Positions 3,128 through 63,084 of a stretch of 64,000 bases of DNA are shown here, in pieces (position 1 is the stretch's first letter; each line of letters begins with the position of its first letter). The stretch spans positions 1-64,000 of the forward strand of contig JAFYAB010000037.1 in assembly GCA_017540945.1 (NCBI GenBank). The letters are read 5' to 3'. This DNA comes from Oscillospiraceae bacterium (GTDB lineage Bacteria; Bacillota_A; Clostridia; Oscillospirales; Oscillospiraceae). Position numbers and translations under genes: made by a program. The notes beneath the pieces are model-generated. The model did no database searches. It was given only the letters and a program-made list of their open reading frames with translations, and was not told the origin of the DNA.

Positions 3128-3230
3128 TATACGGATATTTGTTAATAAGGTCAGAAGTTTTTTTCCGGCATCCGCTTTCTGTGGATGCCGCCCCGGGCAA
3201 AGCCCGGGGAATTATGCCGTACAATATCTA
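3128..3230 (+). repeat. Two-hairpin dispersed repeat (copy 1)
   Basis: A block of about 100 bp matching the reverse complement of 19437-19552. It contains hairpin A (GGCATCCGC at 3167-3175 with GTGGATGCC at 3181-3189), hairpin B (CCCCGGGC at 3191-3198 with GCCCGGGG at 3202-3209, loop AAA) and a conserved end reading ATGCCGTACAATATCTAT. Hairpin A differs from copy 2 at one pair (G-T here, G-C there) yet still pairs. The element ends against the addA stop codon. Confidence 0.8.
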
Positions 3231-6200
3231 TTATAGCGCAATGAAGCAGTCCGTCGCAAAAAAGTACAGCAGCCGCTTTGTCACGGGCAAACTGAAAATG
3301 CGGGAAAGGGCGCTTGCATAGGCGTCCAGCTGCGGCCGGTAGCGGGCCGCGGCCTCCGCTTCCCCGCCGGGCGCGACCCGATCGGTCTTGAAGTCGATGA
3401 CCGTGATGGCTCCCTCCCGGAACAGGCAGCAGTCGGTGACGCCCTGGAGCATGATCTGATCTCCCGCGGCGGCGGGCTCGTAATCTCCTGCGTCGCTCAG
3501 TATGGAGAATTTGAACTCCCGCAGCACCTGGTCCGCCTCCCGCAGCATCGTACCAAGAGGACCGCGGAAAACCCGCAGCAGCTTTTCCGGGTCCACCGCC
3601 GCGGCCTGGGCCGGGGTCAGGAAGGCGTCCCGCTCCATCTCCTTCAGCTGCTGCCTGATCTGATCCAGGCTCCCGGTCCGTCCAAAGTCCAGGAACTGCA
3701 TGGCCTGGTGGACGGCCACGCCCCTTTGGGCGGGCGTCAGAGGCCGCTCCGCGTCCATGAGGCCGGGCTTTCGGAGCTTGAGCCGGAAATAATCCTCCCG
3801 TGGTGCGCCGTCGTCCGCCTCCCGGTCCAACTGCCGCCCCTTAAGCTGGGTTGCGGTCAGCTTGGCGGGCAGGGTCTGGGCCGCGGGATGGGGATACCGG
3901 AACTGTAACTGCTCCCTCAGCGCGGAGAAATCCGGCCGATTGACCGGGGCGGCTTGCTCCGCCCTGACCGGCAGCGCGGTCTGGTCCGCCGTCAGATCGT
4001 GCCATTCGATGCGCCAGGGCAGCTCGGATCGTTCGCAGTCCCCCGGCTTGCCCGCCACGGCGTGAAGGGCTCCGGCCTCCGTCCGAAGCAGGGCGGTCAT
4101 CAGGATCCAATCCGCGGGACAGGAGACCTGGGCGGCGGTGAGCTTCGCCGTTCGCTTCGTCAGGCAGAGGGACAGATCCGTCAGATGCTTTTCCAGAGAA
4201 TCGCCGCAGCAGCTCATGATCAGCATATCCCGGGCCCGGGTCATGGCCACGTAGAGGATCCGCAGCTCCTCGGAGAGGTTCTCCGCCCTGGTCTGGCGGC
4301 TGATGGCTGCCTTTGCGATGGAGTTGAAGCGGGTATGGGTCTCGGGATCGTAGACCGCGCAGCCGGCCCCCAGGCGGCTGTGGAACTGGACCGGTGTCTT
4401 CAGGTCCTCCTGGTTGAAGCGCCGGGTCAGACCACAGAGAAAGACCACGGGGTATTCCAGCCCCTTGGACTTGTGGACGCTCATGACCGTCACTGCGTCG
4501 GATTGGGGTCTTTGCAGCGTCAGGCCCTCCCGCCCCTGCAGCTGCTCCAAATGCTTCAGAAATTGATGCAGGCTCTTGACGCCGCCCTCAGACCAGGAGG
4601 CGGCCATGGCGCAGAAGGCCCGCAGGTTGCGGACCCGGGCCGCGCCGCCGTCCATAGCGGCGTAGACGGCCTCCAGATCCACGCGCTGCTGGATCCGCTC
4701 CAGAAGGCTGTACAGGGGCAGGGTCTGGGCGGCCTCCCGCAGCTCCGTGATGGTTTGGATCGCCTGCCGCAGGGTCGGTTCGTGGGAAGCGGCAAGATCG
4801 TCCCAGAGATCTCCTTGTTTTCCGCCGCTCCGGGCACGGGCCAGGGCCGCCGCCTCCACCCCGAAAATGGGGCTCAGCAGGGCTCCGGTCAGGGGGATGT
4901 CCTGATGGGCGTTGTCCAATACCCGCAGCAGACAGATCAGCGCCTGGACCTCTGCGGCGTCCAAAATGCTCTCTCCGGCGTCGCCGGCCGCGGGGATTCC
5001 CAGGCGCTGCAGCGCCTCCAGATAGTAGCCCGCGGTGTTCTGGGGGGAGCGAAGCAGAATCACGATGTCCTCCGGCCGGACCGGCCGCGTGCCATTTTCG
5101 CCGCGGACCAGCGCAGGGCCGTCCAGCAGCTCCCGGATCCGGCGGGCGACGAACTGTGCCTCCGCCCGGTTCTTCTCCGGCGTCTCCAGCTCCTCGTCCT
5201 CCTGTCGGGTGCAGAGGCAGTGCAGCTCCACTTGGGTCTGCGGCAGGGGCGTCATGCTCCGCCCCGGGCGAAGCGCCTCGTCCTCGCCATAGTCCAGTCC
5301 TCCCGCCTCTTTCGACATACAAAGGCGAAACACAGCGTTTACCGCTTCCAGCACAGCCTCGCCGGAGCGGAAGTTGTGAGACAGCAGGATCCGCTGACGC
5401 CCGGACGGCTCTGTGGTTTCAGCATCCGGATAACGATTGTATTTTTGCAGGAAGATCTCGGGATCCGCCAACCGGAAACGGTAGATGGACTGCTTCACAT
5501 CTCCCACCATGAAGCGGTTTGCGCCCTCCTGGGAGACGGCCCGGAAAATGGCGTCCTGGACCTGGTTGGTGTCCTGGTACTCGTCCACCATGATCTCCCG
5601 GTAGCGCTCACTGATCCGGCGGGCCAGCTCCGTGGGGGTCCTTCCGTCGGGTTCCAGCAGCAGACGGAGGGCATGGTGCTCCAAATCGCCGAAATCCAGC
5701 GCGTGAAGGCGGCGTTTCTCCGCATCAAAGCGTCGGGTAAACTCCCGGGTCAGAGCAAAGAGGGCGCGGAGCATGGAGGCGTTGTCGGACAGATCCGCCA
5801 GCACCTCCTCTGAGGGGCCGTAAAACTCCGCGCACCAGCCGCGAATCTGCTCCGCGGCTTGCTTGCGCACTGCCTTGGCCCTGGTTTGGAGATCCGGGTC
5901 ATCGCAATTTCGCACCACCGGCAGGCGGCCGAAATCCGTTGCCTCCGGGATGGCTGCACGGAGCTCGTCCCAGCCCGCGCAGGCCGCCAGCCGCCGCAGC
6001 CGGGCCGCGTTCTCCCCGTAGAGTGGGCAGTATATTTGCAGCGTATCGCTGTGATCCAGCTCCTGCTTGACATCCTCCAGCGCCGCGGCGCAGCGCAGCG
6101 CGCAGTCCCGCAAACCGCGGATCAGGTAGTCCCCCCAGACCGTCTGCTCCGCGCCGCGGAGCTCTCGCAGATTCAGCATGGCCTCGCATTGATCCAGCCA

Positions 6201-19360: not shown

Positions 19361-19435
19361 TTGATGAAACGGTTATAATCCGTTTTCATCAACCGCAGCA
19401 AAGCTGCGGTTCGCAAGTCCATTTGGATTTGCAAT
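19361..19435. promoter_or_regulatory. Run of three hairpins in the ssnA leader
   Basis: Palindrome TTGATGAAACGG (19361-19372) with CCGTTTTCATCAA (19380-19392; one extra T) lies 32 nt upstream of the ssnA ATG. CCGCAGC-AAA-GCTGCGG (19393-19409) follows, then GCAAGTCC-ATTT-GGATTTGC. Together with the two hairpins of the dispersed repeat next to it, five stem-loops sit in a row. They could form an operator, an mRNA structure or a composite repeat. Confidence 0.55.
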
Positions 19436-19436
19436 C

Positions 19437-19552
19437 ATAGATATTGTACGGCATATTTCCTTGGGCTTTGCCCAGGGCGGCATCCGCAGAAAGCGGATGC
19501 CGGATAAAAAAGTATCGAACTCTTTTATCAAATATTCGTATAAAAACAAAAG
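19437..19552 (-). repeat. Two-hairpin dispersed repeat (copy 2)
   Basis: Reverse-orientation copy of the 3128-3230 element. CCTTGGGC-TTT-GCCCAGGG lies at 19459-19477 and GGCATCCGC (19479-19487) pairs with GCGGATGCC (19493-19501). The flank TATACGAATATTTGATAA on the minus strand also matches copy 1. It lies inside the predicted ssnA leader. Confidence 0.8.
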
Positions 19553-19657
19553 CCGGAAACGCAGGTAGTACCCTCATTTCCAGCCCGTGCGCTAAGCACT
19601 CCGTTTCAGCTGCGTATTCAATTGGATCCAAGCCCTGCCGCTCAAATCTTCATGTAT

Positions 19658-38358: not shown

Positions 38359-39543
38359 ATGACTGTCATCGACATTTATTCGGGCTTCCTCGGCGCGGGC
38401 AAGACCACTCTCATCAAGAAAATGATCTCCGAGGCCTATCAGGGCCAGAAGCTGGTGCTGATCGAAAACGAATTCGGCGAGATCGGCATTGACGGCGGCT
38501 TCCTCAAAGAGGCCGGCATCCAGATCACCGAGATGAATTCCGGCTGCATCTGCTGCTCCCTGGTGGGCGACTTCGGCGCCGCTTTGAAGCAGGTCATCCA
38601 CGACTATCACCCGGACCGTATCCTGATTGAGCCCTCCGGCGTGGGCAAGCTCTCCGACGTGATGGTGGCCGTGAAGAAGGCCGCCGAGCACGAGGCCGTA
38701 CTGGGCGCCACCGTCGCCGTGGCCGACGCCTCCAAGGTGAAGCTCTATATGAAAAACTTCGGCGAGTTCTACAACAACCAGATCGAGACCGCCGGCTGCA
38801 TCGTTCTGAGCCGGACCCAAAATGTTCCCGAGGCCAAGCTGAAGGCCGCCGTGGAGCTGATCCGTCAGCACAACGACCACGCCACCCTGGTCACCACCCC
38901 CTGGGACGAGCTCACCGGAGAGCAGCTGAAGGAGGCCATGGAGGCCAACCCCACCCTGGATGACATGATGCGGGAGCTGATCGAAGCCCACGAGCGCGAA
39001 GAGGCCGAGCACGAGTCGGAGCACCATCACCACCATCACCATCATGACGAGCATGACGGGGAAGAACACGAGCATCATCATCACCATCATGACGATGAAG
39101 AAGAGCACGAGCATCACCATCACGACGAGGACGAGCATCACCATCACGATCACGATGAGGACGAGCACGAGCATCACCATCATTACGATGAAAACGGCGT
39201 CTGCGAATGCGGTCATCATCATGGCGAGGATGAGGAACACGAGCACCACCATCATCACCACCACGCCGACGAGGTGTTCACCAGCTGGGGCCGCGAGACC
39301 ACGAAGCAGTACACCGAGCAGGAGATCCGCAACGCGCTGGGACAGCTGGACAACGCGCTGGAGTACGGGATCATCCTGCGGGCAAAGGGCATCGTGCCCG
39401 CTGCGGACGGCCGCTGGATCCATTTCGACCACGTACCCGGCGAGATCGACGTACGCTTCGGTCCCGCGGACGTGATCGGCAAGCTCTGCGTCATCGGCTC
39501 CAAGATCGACGAGCAAGCCATCGCCGAGCTCTTCGGCCTGTAA
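38359..39543 (+). CDS. CobW/YjiA-type G3E GTPase with 43-histidine loop
   Basis: A 394-residue metallochaperone-type GTPase. Walker A GFLGAGKTT (about 9-17), the metal-binding GCICC motif (about 63-67), an Asp/Glu switch (LIEPSGVGK) and a degenerate guanine-recognition region (IVLSRTQ, usually NKxD) are seen, followed by the CobW C-terminal domain (WGRETTKQYTEQE, ADGRWIHFDHVPGE). Between them residues about 218-310 contain 43 His with Asp and Glu, and one CECGHHH. Such loops bind Zn, Ni or Co for delivery or storage. It is cotranscribed with a second CobW-like gene 12 nt downstream. The target enzyme is unknown. Confidence 0.92.
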   Translation: MTVIDIYSGFLGAGKTTLIKKMISEAYQGQKLVLIENEFGEIGIDGGFLKEAGIQITEMNSGCICCSLVGDFGAALKQVIHDYHPDRILIEPSGVGKLSDVMVAVKKAAEHEAVLGATVAVADASKVKLYMKNFGEFYNNQIETAGCIVLSRTQNVPEAKLKAAVELIRQHNDHATLVTTPWDELTGEQLKEAMEANPTLDDMMRELIEAHEREEAEHESEHHHHHHHHDEHDGEEHEHHHHHHDDEEEHEHHHHDEDEHHHHDHDEDEHEHHHHYDENGVCECGHHHGEDEEHEHHHHHHHADEVFTSWGRETTKQYTEQEIRNALGQLDNALEYGIILRAKGIVPAADGRWIHFDHVPGEIDVRFGPADVIGKLCVIGSKIDEQAIAELFGL

Positions 39544-45256: not shown

Positions 45257-45730
45257 TCACCGTATGACCTGCCAGGCTGCGATCAGGCGGTCCTGGCTCC
45301 AGCTTGCGTTGGCCGGGCTGGTGGAAGGAAGCACAAGCGCAGGGCGGTTCGTTACAGGCTCTGTGTATCTGTGATAGAGCTTTGCAGCAGTCTGACCGTT
45401 GACAAAGATCTCCCGGATCTGAGCGGAATCCAGGATGGGACGCAGATCGTTGACGGCGACGTTGCGGATGGAGGCGTCAGAAGAGCCCCTGATCTCACAG
45501 GATGCGATCACGTCCCAGAGCGCAACGCCATGACGCAGCAGGAAGGCCCTGCGCTCAGCCACCGTTACGGGAACGTCGTCCTCAAAAACGGCGGCCGTCA
45601 CCCGCCAGAAGCGGTTTTGGGGATGGCCATAGAAAAAGCCCTGCTCCCGGGACTTCACCGAGGGGAAGGAACCGAGGATCAGAATGCGGGAATTCCCGTC
45701 ATAGACGGGCGGAATGGGATGGATCAGCAT
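45257..45730 (-). CDS. DNA-deoxyinosine glycosylase (uracil-DNA glycosylase superfamily)
   Basis: A 157-residue base-excision repair enzyme that removes hypoxanthine from DNA. Motifs: ILGSFPSVKSREQGFFYGHPQNRFW, with the catalytic region as in the hypoxanthine-DNA glycosylase/MUG group, ALWDVIASCEIRGSSDASI, and the late LPSTSPANASWS motif. Length matches the family. It runs convergent to nothing nearby and lies between the sigma promoter region and tRNA-Gly; no operon partner is seen. Confidence 0.88.
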   Translation of the reverse strand: MLIHPIPPVYDGNSRILILGSFPSVKSREQGFFYGHPQNRFWRVTAAVFEDDVPVTVAERRAFLLRHGVALWDVIASCEIRGSSDASIRNVAVNDLRPILDSAQIREIFVNGQTAAKLYHRYTEPVTNRPALVLPSTSPANASWSQDRLIAAWQVIR

Positions 45731-47154: not shown

Positions 47155-48327
47155 TCAGGTCTCGCGGAAGGCCTTGGCGATGTTGATGCCCGTCTGGTAC
47201 ATGGTTTTGACGCACATGTCGAAGCTGATGGACTGGGTCTCGTAGAGGAAGTAGGCCAGGTTCAGGCAGTTCATGGCCCGCATGGCCGCCACGGCGTTGC
47301 GCTCGATGCAGGGGATCTGCACCAGGCCGCAGATGGGGTCGCAGGTCAGGCCCAGGTGGTGCTCCAGGGCTATTTCAGCGGCGAACTCGATCTGGTCCAG
47401 GTTCATATCGCAGAGCTCCGCCAGGGCCGCGGAGGCCATGGAGCAGGCCGCGCCGATCTCCGCCTGACAGCCGCACTCAGCTCCGGAGACGGAGGCGTTA
47501 TGCTTGATGAGATTGCCGATGATGCCGCCCACGGCCAGGGCGTGGAGGATCTTCTCGTCGGAGAAGCCATGGTCCTCCTGCATATAGCGCAGGACCGCGG
47601 GCAGGACGCCGCAGCTGCCGCAGGTGGGGGCGGTGACGATGGTGCCGTTATCGGCGTTCTGCTCGGAGACGGCGAAGGCGTAGGCGCAGATCACGCGGGT
47701 CTCCTTGATCTGGACCATCTGGTTCTTGGTCGCCTGCTCATAGAGCAGCTTCGCCTTCCGCTCCAGCTGCAGGCCGCCGGGCAGGATGCCCTCCGCGTGG
47801 AGTCCGTCCGCGATGGCCCAGCGCATGGCCTTCCATACCTTGGCAAGGTAGGTCCAGATCTCCGGCCCTTCGGTCATCTCCACATATTCCCAGATCCGGA
47901 CCTTGCGCCACTGGCAGAAGCGGATGACCTCCGCTAGGGAGTTCTCGGGATAGATCTCCTCTTCGTCCTTGCCGGGAGCCCGTCCCTCGATCACGATGTC
48001 ACCGCCGCCCACAGACTGAACCCGCATTCGGGGGCTTTCGACGCCGTTCTCCACAGCGAAAAAGTCCAGGGTGTTGGGATGGGGCAGGTCGGGGGGATCC
48101 TGCTGAGAAAAGACGATTTCGGTGGGCGTGGGTCCCAGGACCTCCCGCAGCACCCGGTCGGTGCCGTGGCCAACGCCGGTCTTCGCCAGAGAATCATAGA
48201 GTACCACCCGATAGCGCTCCGCGTCGGGGTGCTCCTCCTTGAAGATCCGCGCCGCCCGCTCCGGCCCCATGGTATGGGACGAGGACGGACCCTTGCCGAT
48301 CTTGTAGATATCACGAATGGAACGCAT
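47155..48327 (-). CDS. sdaA: L-serine ammonia-lyase (Fe-S, single chain)
   Basis: Converts L-serine to pyruvate and ammonia with a 4Fe-4S cluster. 390 residues join the N-terminal beta-type domain (SIRDIYKIGKGPSSSHTMGP, VLYDSLAKTGVGHGTD, HPNTLDFFA) to the alpha domain (TAPTCGSCGVLPAVL, GNLIKHNASVSGAECGCQAEIG, HHLGLTCDPICGLVQIPCIERN). Cysteines for the cluster are all visible. The ATG at 48327 has GGGAGG 8 nt upstream and homology begins there. It is divergent from sbcD; both leaders carry the same structured element. Together with glyA it touches serine metabolism, though it is not linked to it. Confidence 0.95.
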   Translation of the reverse strand: MRSIRDIYKIGKGPSSSHTMGPERAARIFKEEHPDAERYRVVLYDSLAKTGVGHGTDRVLREVLGPTPTEIVFSQQDPPDLPHPNTLDFFAVENGVESPRMRVQSVGGGDIVIEGRAPGKDEEEIYPENSLAEVIRFCQWRKVRIWEYVEMTEGPEIWTYLAKVWKAMRWAIADGLHAEGILPGGLQLERKAKLLYEQATKNQMVQIKETRVICAYAFAVSEQNADNGTIVTAPTCGSCGVLPAVLRYMQEDHGFSDEKILHALAVGGIIGNLIKHNASVSGAECGCQAEIGAACSMASAALAELCDMNLDQIEFAAEIALEHHLGLTCDPICGLVQIPCIERNAVAAMRAMNCLNLAYFLYETQSISFDMCVKTMYQTGINIAKAFRET

Positions 48328-48387
48328 GGTCGCAGCCTCCCTCTGTAGTGACAAGCATTGCTTGTCCGCCGTCTCCCCAGGTACTGA

Positions 48388-48453
48388 GGAGTTGAGAATT
48401 GAGAACTAAGAATTGCGAATTGTCGGTGTCGTTCAAATTGCCATTTGAACGAC
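48388..48453 (-). promoter_or_regulatory. Leader element A (sdaA side): hairpin plus AATTCT tract
   Basis: Hairpin 48428-48453: stem GTCGTTCAAAT/ATTTGAACGAC around TGCC. In the sdaA transcript it is followed by an ACCGACAATTC start and repeated AATTCT/CTCAATT units (48427-48388). Element B in the sbcD leader has the same order relative to its own transcript. Confidence 0.7.
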
Positions 48454-48478
48454 GGAAAACGATGCTTATTCTACCTTA

Positions 48479-48506
48479 ATTATAGCATTTGACAGTCGGA
48501 AATCAA
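48479..48506 (-). promoter_or_regulatory. sdaA promoter
   Basis: Minus strand: TTGATT (48506-48501), a 16-nt spacer and TATAAT (48484-48479). Confidence 0.65.
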
Positions 48507-48518
48507 TAGGAAAGTTGC

Positions 48519-48547
48519 TTGCGTACAGGATAATTATATGGTAAAAT
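48519..48547 (+). promoter_or_regulatory. sbcD promoter
   Basis: TTGCGT (48519-48524), a 17-nt spacer and TAAAAT (48542-48547), giving a leader of about 115 nt. Confidence 0.55.
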
Positions 48548-48588
48548 ATACAAGCAAAGGACCCTGTCCCCCGCCCCATTTGATTCCC

Positions 48589-48655
48589 GTTTTGCAGATG
48601 GCGATCTGCAAAACACCACAATTCTTAATTCTCCATTCTCAATTCTCAATTCACA
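48589..48655 (+). promoter_or_regulatory. Leader element B (sbcD side): hairpin plus AATTCT tract
   Basis: Hairpin 48589-48614: stem GTTTTGCAGAT/ATCTGCAAAAC. It is followed by ACCACAATTC and repeated AATTCT/CTCAATT units to 48655, 12 nt before the sbcD ATG. Compared with element A, four stem pairs differ on both sides and all remain paired. Confidence 0.7.
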
Positions 48656-48667
48656 GAGGTATGCGTA

Positions 48668-49993
48668 ATGAAGTTTATCCATATCGCCGACCTGCACCTG
48701 GGCAAATCCCTCCACGGCGTCAACCTGCTGGAATCCGGGGATCAGCCCCACTGGGTTGATCGCTTTCTTGCTCTTGCAGAATCTGTCCTGCCGGACGCGG
48801 TGCTGATCGCGGGGGACGTCTATGACCGGGGAGCGCCGGCAGCGGGGGCGGTGGCGCTGCTGAGCCGTCTGCTCACTGGCTTGGCGGAGCTGGAAATTCC
48901 GGTGCTGCTGATTCCCGGCAACCACGACTCCCCCCAGCGCCTGGCCTTCGGACGGGAGCTGCTGGCCCGGGAGCGCCTGCACATCGCCCCGCCGTTGGAG
49001 TCCCCCGGACTGCTGCGCCGGGTGACGCTGACGGACGAATATGGGCCGGTGGATTTCTGGCTCATGCCCTATCTCTTCCCCGCTCTGGCCTCCGAGGCTC
49101 TGGGGGTGGAGCTGCGGGACTATGACACGGCAGTCCGGGCTCTGCTGGCCGCTCAGCCCATTGACGAGTCTCGTCGGAACGTACTGATCGCCCACCAAAA
49201 TGTGACCGTCGGCGGAGCCGAGGGTGAACGCGGCGGCTCCGAGACCATGGTAGGCGGCGTGGGCCAGGTGGACTTCACAGCCTTCAACGCCTTTGATTAC
49301 ACCGCCCTGGGCCACATTCACGCGGGCTATCCCGTGGGACGAGCTGAGGTCCGCTACGCCGGTTCTCCCCTTTGCTACCACTTCAACGAGACCCGGCAGG
49401 CGGCCAAGGCTCCTCTGCTGGTGGAGCTGGGTCCGAAAGGGGCCCCGGTCCGGACCGGGCCGCTGCCCATCGAGCCCCTGCATCGCCTGCGGGCCATGGA
49501 GGGCAGATACGACGAAATCCGTGCGGAGCTGGCAACTGCAGCGCCCCAGGCAGCGGGGGACTATCTCAGTGTGACCCTGACTGACCAGAGGGTGACGCCG
49601 GAGCTGGCAGAGGAGCTGCGGAGTCTCTGCGAGGCCCGGGGCTGCCTCTTGATGGAGCTGAGCTCCTCCTGGCAGGAGGCTCGGAGCGAGGGGACGCTGA
49701 GCGCGGCCGCCCTCCGGGAAAAAGGGCTGGCGGAGCTCTTCGCGGATTTCTATGCCCAGCGAAACGCAGGCGCCGAGCCGGAACAGGCGGAGCTGCACCT
49801 GCTGCAGAGCGCCGCCGAGCTGGCCGAGCATGCGGACTACCGAAATGAACCCACGGCAGAGCAGATCTCCCGGCTGGTGAACGCTGCCGTAACGGCGCAC
49901 AGTGAGCGCCGCATCGGTAACGCTGCGGAACATGGCGCGCAATGTGGGCCGCTGGCGGGTGATCGCGCACCGAAAAAGGAGGGGGTGACGTGA
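48668..49993 (+). CDS. sbcD: SbcD nuclease subunit
   Basis: Mn-dependent nuclease partner of SbcC, which opens hairpins and trims DNA ends. 441 residues with the calcineurin-like motifs IADLHLGK, AGDVYDRG, PGNHDSPQR, LIAHQNV and GHIHAGY. The capping domain and a C-terminal SbcC-interacting helix follow. The ATG has GAGG 9 nt upstream. Its stop overlaps the SbcC start (GTGA), so the two are translationally coupled. Confidence 0.95.
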   Translation: MKFIHIADLHLGKSLHGVNLLESGDQPHWVDRFLALAESVLPDAVLIAGDVYDRGAPAAGAVALLSRLLTGLAELEIPVLLIPGNHDSPQRLAFGRELLARERLHIAPPLESPGLLRRVTLTDEYGPVDFWLMPYLFPALASEALGVELRDYDTAVRALLAAQPIDESRRNVLIAHQNVTVGGAEGERGGSETMVGGVGQVDFTAFNAFDYTALGHIHAGYPVGRAEVRYAGSPLCYHFNETRQAAKAPLLVELGPKGAPVRTGPLPIEPLHRLRAMEGRYDEIRAELATAAPQAAGDYLSVTLTDQRVTPELAEELRSLCEARGCLLMELSSSWQEARSEGTLSAAALREKGLAELFADFYAQRNAGAEPEQAELHLLQSAAELAEHADYRNEPTAEQISRLVNAAVTAHSERRIGNAAEHGAQCGPLAGDRAPKKEGVT

Positions 49994-53163: not shown

Positions 53164-53185
53164 TTTAAGGTCTTCGACCTCGTTC

Positions 53186-53257
53186 GTAGGGGCCGACGCC
53201 CACATCGGCCCTTTCCCCGGACGACACGGAGGGCCGATGTGGTCATCGGCCCCTTCA
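53186..53257. repeat. GTAGGGG-type palindromic repeat (copy 2)
   Basis: GTAGGGGCCGACGCCC...CATCGGCCC (left arm) and GGGCCGATGTGGTCATCGGCCCC (units of the right arm) around a 19-nt spacer. Arms and order match 1952-2025 closely. It lies 20 nt after sbcC and before a small minus-strand gene. Confidence 0.75.
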
Positions 53258-59624: not shown

Positions 59625-60383
59625 ATGGGACAGGCCGCGGAGCGCTGTTATCGGATCATCAAGGGCACGCTCGATCTGTTCTATCGAAAATACAGCGTCG
59701 AGGGATTGGAACTCCTTCCTTCGGAAGCTGTGATTCTTGTGGGCAATCACAGCCAGGTCCACGGTCCGTTGGTGGGCGAGCTGCGTCTTCCCTTCCCACG
59801 CAAGACCTGGTGCGCTTCGGAGATGATGGAGCGGGACAAAGTGGCGGAATATGCCTTCCGGGATTTCTGGTCCCAGAATCCCAAATGGACCCACCCCTTC
59901 TACAGGGCTCTGGCCCACTCCATCGTTCCCCTGTCGGTGCTCCTGTTCAACCACGCGGAGACCATCCCGGTCTACCGGGACAACCGGGTTCTTTCTACCT
60001 TCCGGACCACGGTCCAAACCCTGGAGGCCGGGACCAGCGTGCTAATCTTCCCGGAGCATGACGTACGCTTCAATCACATTCTGGACGATTTCCAGGACCA
60101 TTTCATCGATCTTGCAAAGCTCTGTTACAAGCGCAGCGGCAAGGCCCTGGCCTTTGTGCCCATGTACATCTGTCCCGCCCTGGGTAAAGTCTGTTTCGGA
60201 GAGCCTGTTCGTTATGATCCGACAGCGCCTATGGACGCCGAGCGGGTCCGGATCAAGCAGGCTTTGGCGGAACGCATCACGGCGCTGGCAGACGCCCTGC
60301 CCCGGCATCGGGTGGTTCCCTACCGGCCCCAGCCGAAAAAGAACTGGCCCTATAATCGACCAAAGGAGGCGGAGAAAGCATGA
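59625..60383 (+). CDS. PlsC-like lysophospholipid acyltransferase
   Basis: 252 residues. Acyltransferase motifs: NHSQVHGPL where the family has NHxxxxD, so the usual Asp is replaced by Gly; the substrate region IPVYRDNRVLSTFR; and LIFPEHDVRFNH in the place of FPEGTRS. FVPMYICPALGKVCFGEPV follows. I recall a clostridial subgroup lacking the same Asp next to PAP2 genes. No membrane span is obvious. GGAGG precedes the ATG, and the gene overlaps the PAP2 gene by 4 nt, so lipid phosphate metabolism is likely. Confidence 0.8.
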   Translation: MGQAAERCYRIIKGTLDLFYRKYSVEGLELLPSEAVILVGNHSQVHGPLVGELRLPFPRKTWCASEMMERDKVAEYAFRDFWSQNPKWTHPFYRALAHSIVPLSVLLFNHAETIPVYRDNRVLSTFRTTVQTLEAGTSVLIFPEHDVRFNHILDDFQDHFIDLAKLCYKRSGKALAFVPMYICPALGKVCFGEPVRYDPTAPMDAERVRIKQALAERITALADALPRHRVVPYRPQPKKNWPYNRPKEAEKA

Positions 60384-61039
60384 GGAAGCCCGCGGTCGAT
60401 TACAAACAGCTGCGCCTGTCCAACATTACCAGCCCCGAATATCGGCACGTCCTGCTGCTGGGCGGCTGGATCGTCTATTTCTCCCTCTATTTCCTGACGG
60501 AGAATCTGATTCCTTACGAGCGCTGCCATGTGATCCACAGCCGTCTGGACGAGCTGATCCCCTTCTGCGAGCTCTTTGTGGTTCCCTATCTGCTGTGGTT
60601 CTTCCTGGTGGCGGGTTCCCTGCTGTATCTGCTGCTCTACGACATTCCGGCTTTCCGGAAGCTCTGCATCTACATCATGATCACCCAGGCGGGCGCCATG
60701 CTGGTCTACATCCTCTGGCCCAATATTCAGCTGCTGCGGCCCGAGACCATGCCCCGGAACAACTTTTTCACCTGGGTGCTGTCCTTTGTCTATTCCTTCG
60801 ATACCCCCACCGGGGTCCTGCCGTCCCTCCATGCAGCCTACTCCATCGCCATCCTGTCGGTCTTCGAGCACCGAAAGAATACCGCGCTATGGTGGAGGAT
60901 TCTGCTGCCGATCTTCGTGGCAACCATCATCGCGGCGACCTTTCTCGTCAAGCAGCACTCCGTTCTGGACGCCCTGGCGGCGATCCCGCTGTGCCTGATC
61001 GGGGAAGCGCTGATCTATTGGTTCAAGCTGCTTAAGTAA
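60380..61039 (+). CDS. PAP2-family membrane phosphatase
   Basis: 219 residues with about six spans. Phosphatase motifs: PTGVLPSLHAAYSIAILS (motif 2, catalytic His) and KQHSVLDALAAIP (motif 3); the motif 1 KxxxxxxRP is only loosely seen as LLRPETMPR. It could dephosphorylate phosphatidate or an undecaprenyl or inositol-type lipid. Last gene of the PlsC-PAP2 unit; its stop codon lies inside the terminator. Confidence 0.85.
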   Translation: MRKPAVDYKQLRLSNITSPEYRHVLLLGGWIVYFSLYFLTENLIPYERCHVIHSRLDELIPFCELFVVPYLLWFFLVAGSLLYLLLYDIPAFRKLCIYIMITQAGAMLVYILWPNIQLLRPETMPRNNFFTWVLSFVYSFDTPTGVLPSLHAAYSIAILSVFEHRKNTALWWRILLPIFVATIIAATFLVKQHSVLDALAAIPLCLIGEALIYWFKLLK

Positions 61040-61089
61040 ACGAAAAAACGAAAAAGAGGCGTTCGAGCCTCTTTTTCGTTTTTTCGTTT
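61038..61089. terminator. Long bidirectional terminator
   Basis: A perfect 23-bp stem (61038-61060 with 61067-61089; ends AAACGAAAAAACG and CGTTTTTTCGTTT) with loop GTTCGA. It sits between convergent PAP2 and S9 peptidase genes. Confidence 0.92.
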
Positions 61090-61095
61090 TCTCGA

Positions 61096-63084
61096 TTATT
61101 TTGCGTGCTTCTCGAACCAGTCGGTGATCTCTTTGAGTCGGCGCTGGCGGTGCTTGGGCTTGCCGGAGCGGGAGAGCTCATGGGTCTCGCCGTGGAAGAG
61201 GCAGAGCCTGGCCTCCACGCCGCGGTCCACCAGGGCGGCGTACATCTGGATGCCCTCCGCCATGGGGCAGCGGTAGTCCTGGTCGGAGTGGATAAAGAGG
61301 GTGGGCGTTTTCACGTTCTTCGCGTATTTCAGCGGAGACTGTTCCCAAAGCTTTTCGGGGGTCTCGTAGATGTCCCCGTCGGTCTGGTCTCCGGCAAAGT
61401 AGAAGCCGATATCCGACATGCCGTAGAAGCCCAGCCAGTTGGCGATGGAGCGCTGGGAGGCGGCGCAGCAGAAACGGTCCGTGTGTCCGATGATCCAGTT
61501 GGTCATGAAGCCGCCGTAGCTGCCGCCGGTCTCGCAGAGCCGATCCTTGTCGATCTGGGGGTATTTCTCCAGCACCGCGTCGGTGAAGTCCATGAGGTTC
61601 TGATAGTCTGTATCACCGTAATGGCCGCGGATGTCCATGAACTTGTTGTCCCGGCCGTCGCTGCCCATGGGATTGCAGAAGAAGACGAAGTAGCCCATCG
61701 ACGCCCAGAGCTGCATCTCGTGGTAGAAGACGGGCCCGTAGACGGTCTTGGGGCCGCCGTGGACGTCCAGGACAGCGGGATATTTCTTCGCCGGGTCGAA
61801 GTCCCTGGGCCTGAGGACCCAGCCGCCGATCTCCCAGCCCCGGCTCTGTATGGTGATGGGCTCGGGCTTTGCCACGTAGCGTCCCTCCAAGGCATCGTCG
61901 TTAAAGTGGGATACCCGGGTCAGTTTCGTATCGCCCAGCTTCGCGGCGTAGAGCTCCTGGGGCCGCATATCGTAGAGGCCCACGCAGAGCAGCTGCCCAT
62001 TCGCCACGTCGAAGCAGTCCATGGCGCCCTCGCCGGAAAAGACCGCTTCATCCGTGCCATCGGGGCGGAGCAGGTGGAGCACGGCGTTCCCCTCCCGGGT
62101 CGCCAGGTGATAAATACCCTCCGGAGCCCCCACGGCCTGACGGCCTCCGCCCAGGCGACAGTCGGAGCCCACGGAATTGTACATGTTGTACTCCTCCTGC
62201 CGCAGCAGCTCGATGCTTCCGACAGCGGGATCCACGGTGTAGACCCAGGCGTTTTCATTGATGCCATGGCGCAGGGCTTCAGTGCCCAGAAGATAGACCC
62301 TGTCCCCCGCGACCTCCATGGCGTGTGCGGAAAGTCCGGGATGCTCCAGGACCTCCCGGCGCGCCCCGGTCCTCCAGTTGACGGCACGAAGGCGGAAGCC
62401 GCGGATCGGACGCTTGGCGGTCCAGCTGTGATAGGCCAGCAGAACCTCATCCTTCAGGACCGTCATGCTGCAAAGGTCCTCCGGAGCCTCCATCAGAGGG
62501 GTAATCTCCATGGGCTCCCGCCGGACCAGATAGGCCAGCCTGCGTCTGCCGTTGACGACGCCCGCGCCGTTGGACCAGAAGGGCAGCTCGGTGAAGACCT
62601 CATAGTCCTTGTCCTCGTCCTTCTGCTTGCGGTAGGTCTTTTTCTCCTCCTCGGAGGCGGCGTAGAGCAGAGGCGCGTCCTTGTCCACCGCGGCGGTGAC
62701 CAGAAAGCAGCCCTCGTCCAGCAGGCGGATGGACTGGACAGCAAAGGGCAGGGTTATGAAGGGCAGGGCCTCGCCGCCCTCCAGATCGAGGACGTAGTAG
62801 GCGGTAAAGGGCTCCTTGGCCTCGCTGCGTTTCTTTTCCTTTGCCGAGCGCACCGCCGGGAAGATCAGCCGGTGATCATCCAGCCAGAGGAAGCTTCCCT
62901 CCTTGCCCAGATCCGTGAGCTGACGCAGGCCGCCGTTCTCATAGAGCCACAGGCGGCGCTCGTAGTCGTTCTCCTCCTCGTTGGAGTTGGCGACGACAAA
63001 AGCGGCGTGCTCCCCGTCAGGAGAAAAACGAACGCCAGAGAGGAATTTGTATTGTAAAAGGTCACCTTGTGTAATCGGTTCCAT
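61096..63084 (-). CDS. S9-family serine peptidase (acylaminoacyl-peptidase-like)
   Basis: 662 residues, cytoplasmic. A beta-propeller (about 1-400) precedes an alpha/beta hydrolase domain with AVLDVHGGPKTVYG, the nucleophile in CETGGSYGGFMTNWIIG, and the last His in LFHGETHELSRSGKP. Cleaves short peptides or acylated N-termini. The ATG at 63084 with AGGAG upstream is preferred over the earlier one. No signal peptide. With the M42 enzyme next to it, it suggests peptide salvage. Confidence 0.92.
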   Translation of the reverse strand: MEPITQGDLLQYKFLSGVRFSPDGEHAAFVVANSNEEENDYERRLWLYENGGLRQLTDLGKEGSFLWLDDHRLIFPAVRSAKEKKRSEAKEPFTAYYVLDLEGGEALPFITLPFAVQSIRLLDEGCFLVTAAVDKDAPLLYAASEEEKKTYRKQKDEDKDYEVFTELPFWSNGAGVVNGRRRLAYLVRREPMEITPLMEAPEDLCSMTVLKDEVLLAYHSWTAKRPIRGFRLRAVNWRTGARREVLEHPGLSAHAMEVAGDRVYLLGTEALRHGINENAWVYTVDPAVGSIELLRQEEYNMYNSVGSDCRLGGGRQAVGAPEGIYHLATREGNAVLHLLRPDGTDEAVFSGEGAMDCFDVANGQLLCVGLYDMRPQELYAAKLGDTKLTRVSHFNDDALEGRYVAKPEPITIQSRGWEIGGWVLRPRDFDPAKKYPAVLDVHGGPKTVYGPVFYHEMQLWASMGYFVFFCNPMGSDGRDNKFMDIRGHYGDTDYQNLMDFTDAVLEKYPQIDKDRLCETGGSYGGFMTNWIIGHTDRFCCAASQRSIANWLGFYGMSDIGFYFAGDQTDGDIYETPEKLWEQSPLKYAKNVKTPTLFIHSDQDYRCPMAEGIQMYAALVDRGVEARLCLFHGETHELSRSGKPKHRQRRLKEITDWFEKHAK

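What the first reader, a model, noticed from the sequence alone, without database searches (positions are those of the whole stretch)
48388..48667. Divergent sdaA and sbcD leaders carry one hairpin-plus-tract element with compensated stem changes
Both leaders contain, in the same order relative to their own transcript, a 26-nt hairpin, then ACC(G)ACAATTC, then repeated AATTCT/CTCAATT units. The hairpins (48428-48453, 48589-48614) have equal length and a GCC loop. They differ at four stem pairs (C-G/T-A, G-C/T-A, T-A/G-C, A-T/G-C), and every change is compensated. This argues for a selected RNA or DNA structure, either a regulatory leader or a structured mobile repeat.
Basis: partly seen in the sequence, partly recalled or inferred. 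Interest (0 to 1): 0.75.

Follow-up and report, generated by a model that had tools for sequence, protein, structure and literature searches.

The report
Hairpin-ended mobile repeat flanking divergent promoters
The two matching hairpin-plus-repeat motifs look like the two ends of a small mobile DNA repeat present in many copies across one genus of gut and rumen bacteria, here sitting on either side of two back-to-back gene promoters, rather than a shared genetic switch.

Summary
The sdaA and sbcD leaders each carry a 26-nt hairpin (11-bp stem), an ACC tag and about five 7-nt repeats, in the same order relative to their transcripts; the stems differ at four pairs, all compensated.

It is not a dedicated leader. 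Of 14 genomes with divergent sdaA/sbcD, only G001 shares the pair. The unit belongs to a dispersed family: 22 of 23 genomes of the G001 genus have 1-129 matches, against 6 of 101 in a family sample. Of 76 neighbouring units within 700 nt, 63 face each other, hairpins inward, so the inverted pair is the element. Two end types, alpha and beta, pair in 19 of 23 class II elements with clear hairpins. The window pair is alpha plus beta, so its hairpins are different ends, not diverged copies. Gene orientation is unbiased. Stem changes are two-sided in 202 cells, one-sided in 4, without G-U excess, fitting a DNA palindrome better than RNA.

Best reading: a REPIN/MITE-like element with heptad-repeat termini, bracketing native divergent promoters. 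The enzyme is unknown; 11 RAYT loci viewed carry GTAG palindromes.

The parts
48388..48423 (-). heptad tract of the alpha unit (about five AATTCTC-like 7-mers), outer end on the sdaA side
48424..48427 (-). tag next to the hairpin (ACCG on the transcript strand, CGGT on the other)
48428..48453 (-). alpha hairpin GTCGTTCAAAT-GGCA-ATTTGAACGAC, identical in G001
48454..48464 (+). inner flank of alpha (GGAAAACGATG), resembling the inner flank of other alpha ends
   Evidence: compared by eye
48476..48548 (.). native divergent promoter DNA of sdaA and sbcD, aligned with relatives L226 (G008) and L227 (G004) that lack the pair
   Evidence: local score 55 and 57 against maxima of 24 and 26 in 200 shuffles
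48479..48506 (-). sdaA promoter-like site TTGATT-16-TATAAT with TG before the -10
   Evidence: consensus match only
48519..48547 (+). sbcD promoter-like site TTGCGT-17-TAAAAT (not listed by the scan; named by eye)
   Evidence: inference
48577..48588 (+). inner flank of beta (CATTTGATTCCC), resembling other beta ends
   Evidence: compared by eye
48589..48614 (+). beta hairpin GTTTTGCAGAT-GGCG-ATCTGCAAAAC
48615..48617 (+). tag ACC
48618..48652 (+). heptad tract of the beta unit, ending 2 nt before the sbcD Shine-Dalgarno-like AGAGG
48345..48369 (+). GTAG-type palindromic repeat (GTAGTGACAAGCATTGCTTGTCC) in the sdaA leader, a separate REP family
47155..48327 (-). sdaA (L-serine dehydratase)
   Evidence: name recalled from the sequence and the finding, not tested
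48668..49993 (+). sbcD
   Evidence: name recalled from the sequence and the finding, not tested

Best explanation
The two motifs are the left (alpha) and right (beta) ends of a small non-autonomous mobile repeat, REPIN/MITE-like in build: heptad tract, tag, hairpin, variable core, hairpin, tag, heptad tract, the two halves inverted. Shown: dispersed, inward-facing pairs, mostly intergenic, genus-restricted in the samples searched, palindromes kept by paired changes, whole units (ends plus core) repeated at different loci. Inferred: an enzyme that reads each end as a folded DNA hairpin plus its tag mobilises the unit, and the heptad arrays are the outermost part of each end. In the window the alpha and beta ends bracket the native sdaA/sbcD promoters, so both hairpins lie in 5' leaders and should be transcribed, but leader regulation is not the reason the family exists. 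Whether this pair is one element that came to contain host promoter DNA or two insertions is not settled; alpha units are rare alone (3 of 45 solo units with clear hairpins), which leans to one element.
For: Family and range. Inward-facing pairs 63 of 76 neighbours within 700 nt. Alpha plus beta in 19 of 23 class II pairs with clear hairpins (4 further class II pairs had no clear hairpin); of 11 class III pairs with clear hairpins (4 more unclear) only the window and its G001 ortholog are alpha/beta, 9 are beta/beta. Whole-unit copies at different loci of one genome, 85% over 239 nt and ending near the element borders (L206/L210, G004). Stem covariation in 9 of 11 pairs, 202 two-sided to 4 one-sided cells. 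Heptad period: lag-7 match 0.70 against 0.28 further out; commonest length five heptads, 84 of 156. 6 of 133 elements wholly inside a called gene and 7 at contig edges, with 86% of bases in called genes. Sister genomes without the pair and element-poor orthologous sites.
Against: No transposase with these ends was found. No target-site duplication could be read in five comparisons. Left and right tracts of one element are no more alike than tracts of different elements of the same genome for class II (0.74 vs 0.78) and class III (0.73 vs 0.73), only marginally for class I (0.69 vs 0.63, 107 of 2000 permutations as high), unusual for freshly copied terminal inverted repeats. In the window the alpha unit (hairpin 26 of 26, tract plus tag about 36 of 39 by eye against G001) is more conserved than fourfold silent sites beside it (37 of 51 and 32 of 54), which could mean local function.
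Confidence: 0.68

Rival explanations
1. A cis-regulatory RNA leader shared by sdaA and sbcD: hairpin plus pyrimidine-rich tract controls translation or decay.
For: Both units lie between promoter and Shine-Dalgarno in the same sense; leader RNAs fold better than shuffles (z -3.65 and -2.21); alpha unit conserved in G001.
Against: 13 of 14 genomes with divergent sdaA/sbcD lack it; copies are not biased to 5' ends; no G-U excess (A-C 16, G-T 6 in stems with at least 9 Watson-Crick pairs); units are found beside many other genes in 22 of 23 genus genomes.
Confidence: 0.07
2. A dispersed DNA site bound by a host protein (nucleoid, segregation or replication factor) that reads palindrome plus heptad array; copies persist because the host needs them.
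For: DNA-level palindromes, mostly intergenic, in 22 of 23 genus members; elements kept at orthologous loci between species.
Against: 39 different left arms among stems with at least 10 of 11 pairs; copy number 0 to 129 between genus members, one with none.
Confidence: 0.12
3. Passive palindromes perfected by template switching during replication (quasipalindrome correction) or by conversion from other copies explain the compensated changes; no selection on structure and no dedicated enzyme at present.
For: Two-sided changes with almost no intermediates; 4 to 6 compensated changes at three of seven orthologous loci, against one broken pair and one hairpin that lost a base at two others.
Against: Does not explain inward pairing, end types, heptad arrays or dispersal; distant inverted tracts are not homogenised within elements.
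Confidence: 0.13
4. The window pair is two independent single-unit insertions that happen to face each other around the promoters.
For: Native promoter DNA lies between them; solo units exist (45 with clear hairpins); the sbcD leader of G004 carries a hairpin (of the GTAG kind) with a heptad remnant on the sbcD side alone, a weak model match (16.9 bits, E 0.067).
Against: Solo alpha units are rare, 3 of 45; correct alpha/beta pairing and inward orientation are both needed; none of the 13 relatives without the pair has an alpha or beta hairpin of this family in the interval (by eye).
Confidence: 0.4

Closest known systems
REPINs / REP HH dimers (PMC3116915, PMC3733652, PMC8266576; passages read)
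   Same: Short palindromes with a tag at one foot, paired as inverted dimers with tags outside, hetero-dimers, spacers of similar length but varying sequence, compensatory stem changes, intergenic.
   Different: Tag is mostly GG(T/A)G or TGTG, not GTAG; each dimer is flanked by inverted arrays of about five 7-mers; the 11 RAYT loci viewed are flanked by GTAG palindromes instead.
TIR repeats of TIRYT genes (PMC3733652, passages read)
   Same: Long terminal inverted repeats, some self-complementary, dispersed as dimers or clusters.
   Different: No Y1 transposase flanked on both sides by these ends was found here; heptad arrays are not mentioned in the passages read.
SDR elements in heptameric repeats of cyanobacteria (Elhai et al. 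2008; recalled, paper not held, only its reference entry seen)
   Same: As recalled: 21-27 nt hairpins with compensatory changes, often set in tandem heptamers or minitransposons.
   Different: Different phylum; here the heptads are inverted either side of the hairpin pair. No comparison could be made.
Inverted (GGGAATC)n heptad repeats of Xanthomonas (PMC4692102, passages and section 10 read)
   Same: Mostly intergenic heptad tracts, commonly of four units, often as two convergent tracts close together.
   Different: G-rich, read there as quadruplex formers; no conserved hairpin between them is described in that section.
Bacterial MITEs (general knowledge; only listings seen)
   Same: Short, non-coding, inverted termini, dispersed.
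   Different: No parent insertion sequence and no target duplication found here.

Membership tests
REP/REPIN | palindrome preceded by GTAG (or a close variant) | tested here: not met
   second base after the hairpin is C in 96% of 156 units and the third C in 61%; on the other strand this gives tags such as GGTG, GGAG, TGTG, not GTAG
REP/REPIN | inverted doublets with tags outside | tested here: met
   63 of 76 neighbours within 700 nt face inward; anatomy
REP/REPIN | cognate RAYT flanked by the same palindromes | tested here: not met
   11 RAYT loci viewed, all with GTAG-type palindromes beside them. Model matches (E up to 0.1) lie somewhere within the fetched flanks of 5 of 23 Y1 loci (L257, L258, L260, L297, L298), not as a bracketing pair; in L260 one abuts the RAYT frame and another lies about 1.2 kb off beyond a further gene. 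Not compared with chance density
REP/REPIN | compensatory stem changes, intergenic location | tested here: met
MITE | terminal inverted repeats | tested here: met
   arms only about 0.7 alike
MITE | target-site duplication | tested here: inconclusive
   five element/empty alignments, none clean enough to read
MITE | parent element with the same ends and a transposase | tested here: inconclusive
   only the Y1 family was searched; others not searched
cis-regulatory RNA leader | conserved before orthologous genes, fixed orientation | tested here: not met
cis-regulatory RNA leader | match to a described RNA family | tested here: not met
   four matches in the window at gathering score, none here
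SDR (cyanobacteria) | 21-27 nt hairpin in tandem heptamers | not testable with these tools
   defining paper not held; definition recalled

The most novel reading that the evidence does not exclude
A new class of hairpin-ended mobile DNA whose termini are arrays of a 7-nt unit with a fixed period and usual number (five) but changeable letters, and whose alpha and beta ends can bracket host DNA, here a divergent promoter; it would be moved by an enzyme that reads DNA hairpins plus heptads and is neither a RAYT nor a classical insertion-sequence transposase.
Probability: 0.25. Interest if true: 0.72.

Novelty: new variant of a known kind. Interest (0 to 1): 0.46.

Why it matters
It shows a genus of gut and rumen Clostridia whose intergenic DNA is strongly shaped by a REPIN-like family with heptad-array ends, alongside classical GTAG REPs with their RAYTs. 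It gives a natural test of what the heptads do and of which enzyme reads the ends, and a caution that compensated hairpins in leaders need not be RNA regulators.

Tried and rejected
Shared regulatory leader: rejected on distribution, orientation and lack of G-U pairs. Long tract-tract stem kept by covariation: not supported. RAYT of the genus as the mover: the 11 loci viewed carry GTAG palindromes, though elements lie within the flanks of 5 of 23 Y1 loci, so it is unlikely rather than excluded. Viral carriage: two exact patterns gave no match in viral contigs; an earlier exact heptad pattern gave 25 places, none with the hairpin by eye and one (L095) with a short heptad-like run. Plasmids and phages: matches to 11-16% of the query, in the beta tract, in 2 and 1 records. 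Target duplications: not readable. The first gene caller mis-called proS and was replaced; it had put 12 elements mostly inside and 20 partly inside called genes, and one search counts only elements wholly inside, so partial overlaps are not in the figure of 6. Core folding is only slightly better than mononucleotide shuffles (mean z -0.69, n 24). The count of distinct hairpins did not merge class I double readings well and is not used. The script missed loci in reverse orientation; one search replaces it.

Limits: model R1 was built from 10 copies that I chose after inspection; later hits are selected by that model, which may disfavour G-U pairs, and A2 is aligned to it; the DNA fetched lay around high-scoring hits; relatives are mostly metagenome bins; genus, family and order members are unnamed; match counts per genome are capped by 150 scored candidates, or by 37 and 53 with stricter filters.

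Full report
Observation. The sequence is as described. In the sdaA leader (minus strand) the order is hairpin 48453-48428, ACCG, heptads down to 48388; in the sbcD leader (plus strand) hairpin 48589-48614, ACC, heptads to 48652. Stems are 11 bp, loops GGCA and GGCG on the transcript strand; four stem pairs differ and all are compensated. Each hairpin folds better than all 200 shuffles as RNA or DNA. Rfam has no family here at gathering score.

The locus in relatives. sbcD loci were collected. Of 18 loci inspected in both orientations, 14 (one per genome) have sdaA divergent from sbcD; only G001 has the pair, at the same places as the window, and the other 13 lack it; 4 loci have no sdaA start in front. 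The covariance model agrees: in 17 loci its two strong matches in the interval are those of G001; G004 gives a weak one (16.9 bits, E 0.067) where its sbcD leader holds a GTAG palindrome and a heptad remnant; matches in the G003 loci (L003, L225) lie outside the interval. The interior of the window pair contains the native promoter block: alignments to L227 and L226 score 57 and 55 against maxima of 26 and 24 in 200 shuffles and cover 48476-48548 and 48479-48548; L229, L230 and L231 also exceed all shuffles; L233, L236 and L239 do not (8 loci).

The family. A heptad pattern with up to 3 mismatches hits all 9 relatives searched, 68 to 343 times in six of them and 1 to 16 in three; matches overlap within a tract, and the backward control is 0-25 per strand, high only in G002 (21 and 25 against 29 and 39). 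A covariance model of ten copies finds 1-125 matches in 9 of 10 genomes, 1-129 in 22 of 23 genomes of the G001 genus, and matches in 6 of 101 of a family sample (G001 53, the others 1-6) and 6 of 147 of an order sample (G001 37, G109 9, the others 1-2). In these samples it is essentially a genus-level family. In 853 kb fetched around hits plus the window there are 196 matches at E up to 0.001 (97 and 99; 190 when searched in one call).

The unit is an inverted pair. Of 76 neighbouring matches within 700 nt, 63 face each other with hairpins inward, 6 face outward and 7 run the same way. Gaps between the two matches fall into classes: overlapping on a single hairpin (class I, 21 pairs); up to 100 nt, mostly 28-39 and 84-94 (class II, 27); longer (class III, 15). 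Two stem types recur: alpha (RTCGTTCAAAT) and beta (GTTTTGCAGAT, GTTTTTCAAAT, TGTTTTCAAAT and kin). Class II with clear hairpins: 19 of 23 alpha/beta, 2 beta/beta, 2 undecided; 4 more unclear. Class III with clear hairpins: 9 beta/beta and 2 alpha/beta, those two being the window and its G001 ortholog; 4 unclear. Class I: 20 beta/beta, 1 unclear. Solo units with clear hairpins are 40 beta, 3 alpha, 2 undecided. So the window pair carries the two ends of an alpha/beta element, and its two hairpins differ because they are different ends.

Mobility. Whole elements, core included, recur at different loci of one genome: L206_871 and L210_914 in G004 share 85% over 239 nt, ending near the element borders; long G009 elements share interiors. 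Some elements sit at orthologous loci of two species. At the ffh-rpsP interval (names by eye) G001 holds only a heptad tract where G003 and G008 hold a full class II element. No clean target duplication could be read in the five comparisons made.

Placement. With the improved gene caller, 6 of 133 elements lie wholly inside a called gene and 7 at contig edges, while 86% of bases are called coding. Outer ends of pairs adjoin a gene 5' end 61 times and a 3' end 65 times; the tract side of solo units 25 and 32 times. Of 120 elements between genes, 88 are between co-directional genes, 19 convergent, 13 divergent, divergent intervals holding 26,868 of 134,076 background intergenic bases. There is no 5'-leader preference.

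DNA or RNA. On 148 distinct sequences of A2, 95.0% of 1,597 cells pair, 9 of 11 pairs have two-sided changes, 202 cells changed on both sides and 4 on one side; none of 500 shuffles reaches any of the five measures. In stems with at least 9 Watson-Crick pairs, G-T cells are 6 and A-C cells 16, and G-T is 0.34% of standard pairs, against 7.5% G-U (16 of 213) in stems of 10 tRNAs from the same DNA; inner pairs alone give G-T 3, A-C 8 (p 0.23). That points to a DNA palindrome. Caution: hits were chosen by a model without G-U pairs, the tRNA control is small, and a slight preference on the opposite strand (16 to 6) cannot be excluded. At seven orthologous element pairs, hairpins at three loci differ by compensated changes (1, 2, and 1 or 3 depending on which neighbour is the ortholog), the beta stem of G001 at this locus has one broken pair, and one G008 hairpin has lost a base; the remaining two loci are unchanged. 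Template switching or conversion from other copies could give the same.

Tracts. Lag-7 match is 0.70 against 0.28 in the control stretch; 84 of 156 tracts have five heptads by the rule used; commonest heptads vary by genome (AATTCTC, AATTTTC, AACTTTC, AATTGTC, ATTATTC). Left and right tracts of one element are not more alike than chance within a genome for classes II and III (1879 and 499 of 2000 permutations as high) and marginally so for class I (107 of 2000).

Enzyme. Y1 transposases occur in 12 of 23 genus members and were not found, for example, in G008 and G014, which have 55 and 91 matches; these are bins and may be incomplete. Eleven RAYT loci viewed have GTAG palindromes of several kinds beside them, not a bracketing pair of these ends. 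Against a clean separation: model matches lie within the fetched flanks of 5 of 23 Y1 loci, and in L260 an element lies at the 5' end of a RAYT reading frame. The mover is unknown.

Conservation at this locus. Against G001 the alpha hairpin is 26 of 26, the alpha tract plus tag about 36 of 39 (by eye), the beta hairpin 24 of 26, 48481-48523 of the promoter block identical, while the sbcD leader spacer is poorly alignable. Fourfold sites are 0.54 identical in sbcD, 0.56 in sbcC, 0.58 in the gene at 45257, 0.75 in sdaA, 0.87 in the part of proS compared; near the leader 37 of 51 and 32 of 54. This leaves room for some local function or for conversion, and is the best remaining point for the leader reading.

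Known relatives. REPINs and REP HH dimers share the build (passages of PMC3116915, PMC3733652, PMC8266576), as do inverted heptad pairs in Xanthomonas (PMC4692102, passages and section 10) and, from recall only, cyanobacterial SDR elements. Membership in REP fails on the GTAG tag and on the RAYT association. Searches of the held library listed no paper that I could recognise, from title and start of abstract, as describing this family; that is not proof of absence from print.

Noticed in passing
1954-2025 and 53185-53254: GTAG-type palindromic doublets (GTAGGGGCCGATGCCCACATCGGCCC and its inverse), REPIN-like, two sites 51 kb apart.
   Followed up: partly
L257, L258, L260-L265, L296, L301, L302: RAYT-like Y1 transposases in this genus, each beside its own GTAG palindrome type; the passages read of PMC3733652 name Proteobacteria, Cyanobacteria, Chloroflexi and PVC for GTAG repeats, and the word Firmicutes does not occur in that text.
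   Followed up: partly
L107 and L115 (G004, G009): A heptad tract alone inside what looks by eye like truB, apparently in frame.
   Followed up: no
L260, about 1770-1885: Element variant with heptads of another sequence (TAGATAA-like) but the same period, at the 5' end of a RAYT reading frame.
   Followed up: no
3158-3237 and 19431-19510: 80-nt inverted repeat pair, 90% complementary, 16 kb apart.
   Followed up: no
19572-19619 (minus): Rfam match to the ssnA RNA motif (42.2 bits), about 60 nt from the 19431-19510 repeat.
   Followed up: no
39013-39276: Long run of repeats made of CAC/CAT and GAC/GAG words, giving a His- and acid-rich stretch if read on the plus strand.
   Followed up: no
61038-61089: Perfect 23-bp hairpin with A/T-rich arms between called genes 60380-61039 (+) and 61096-63084 (-), probably a two-way terminator.
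   Followed up: no
G009 contigs C108 and C111 (L165-L170): Very dense nested repeats between housekeeping genes: these ends with GTAG palindromes and other repeats inside one another.
   Followed up: partly
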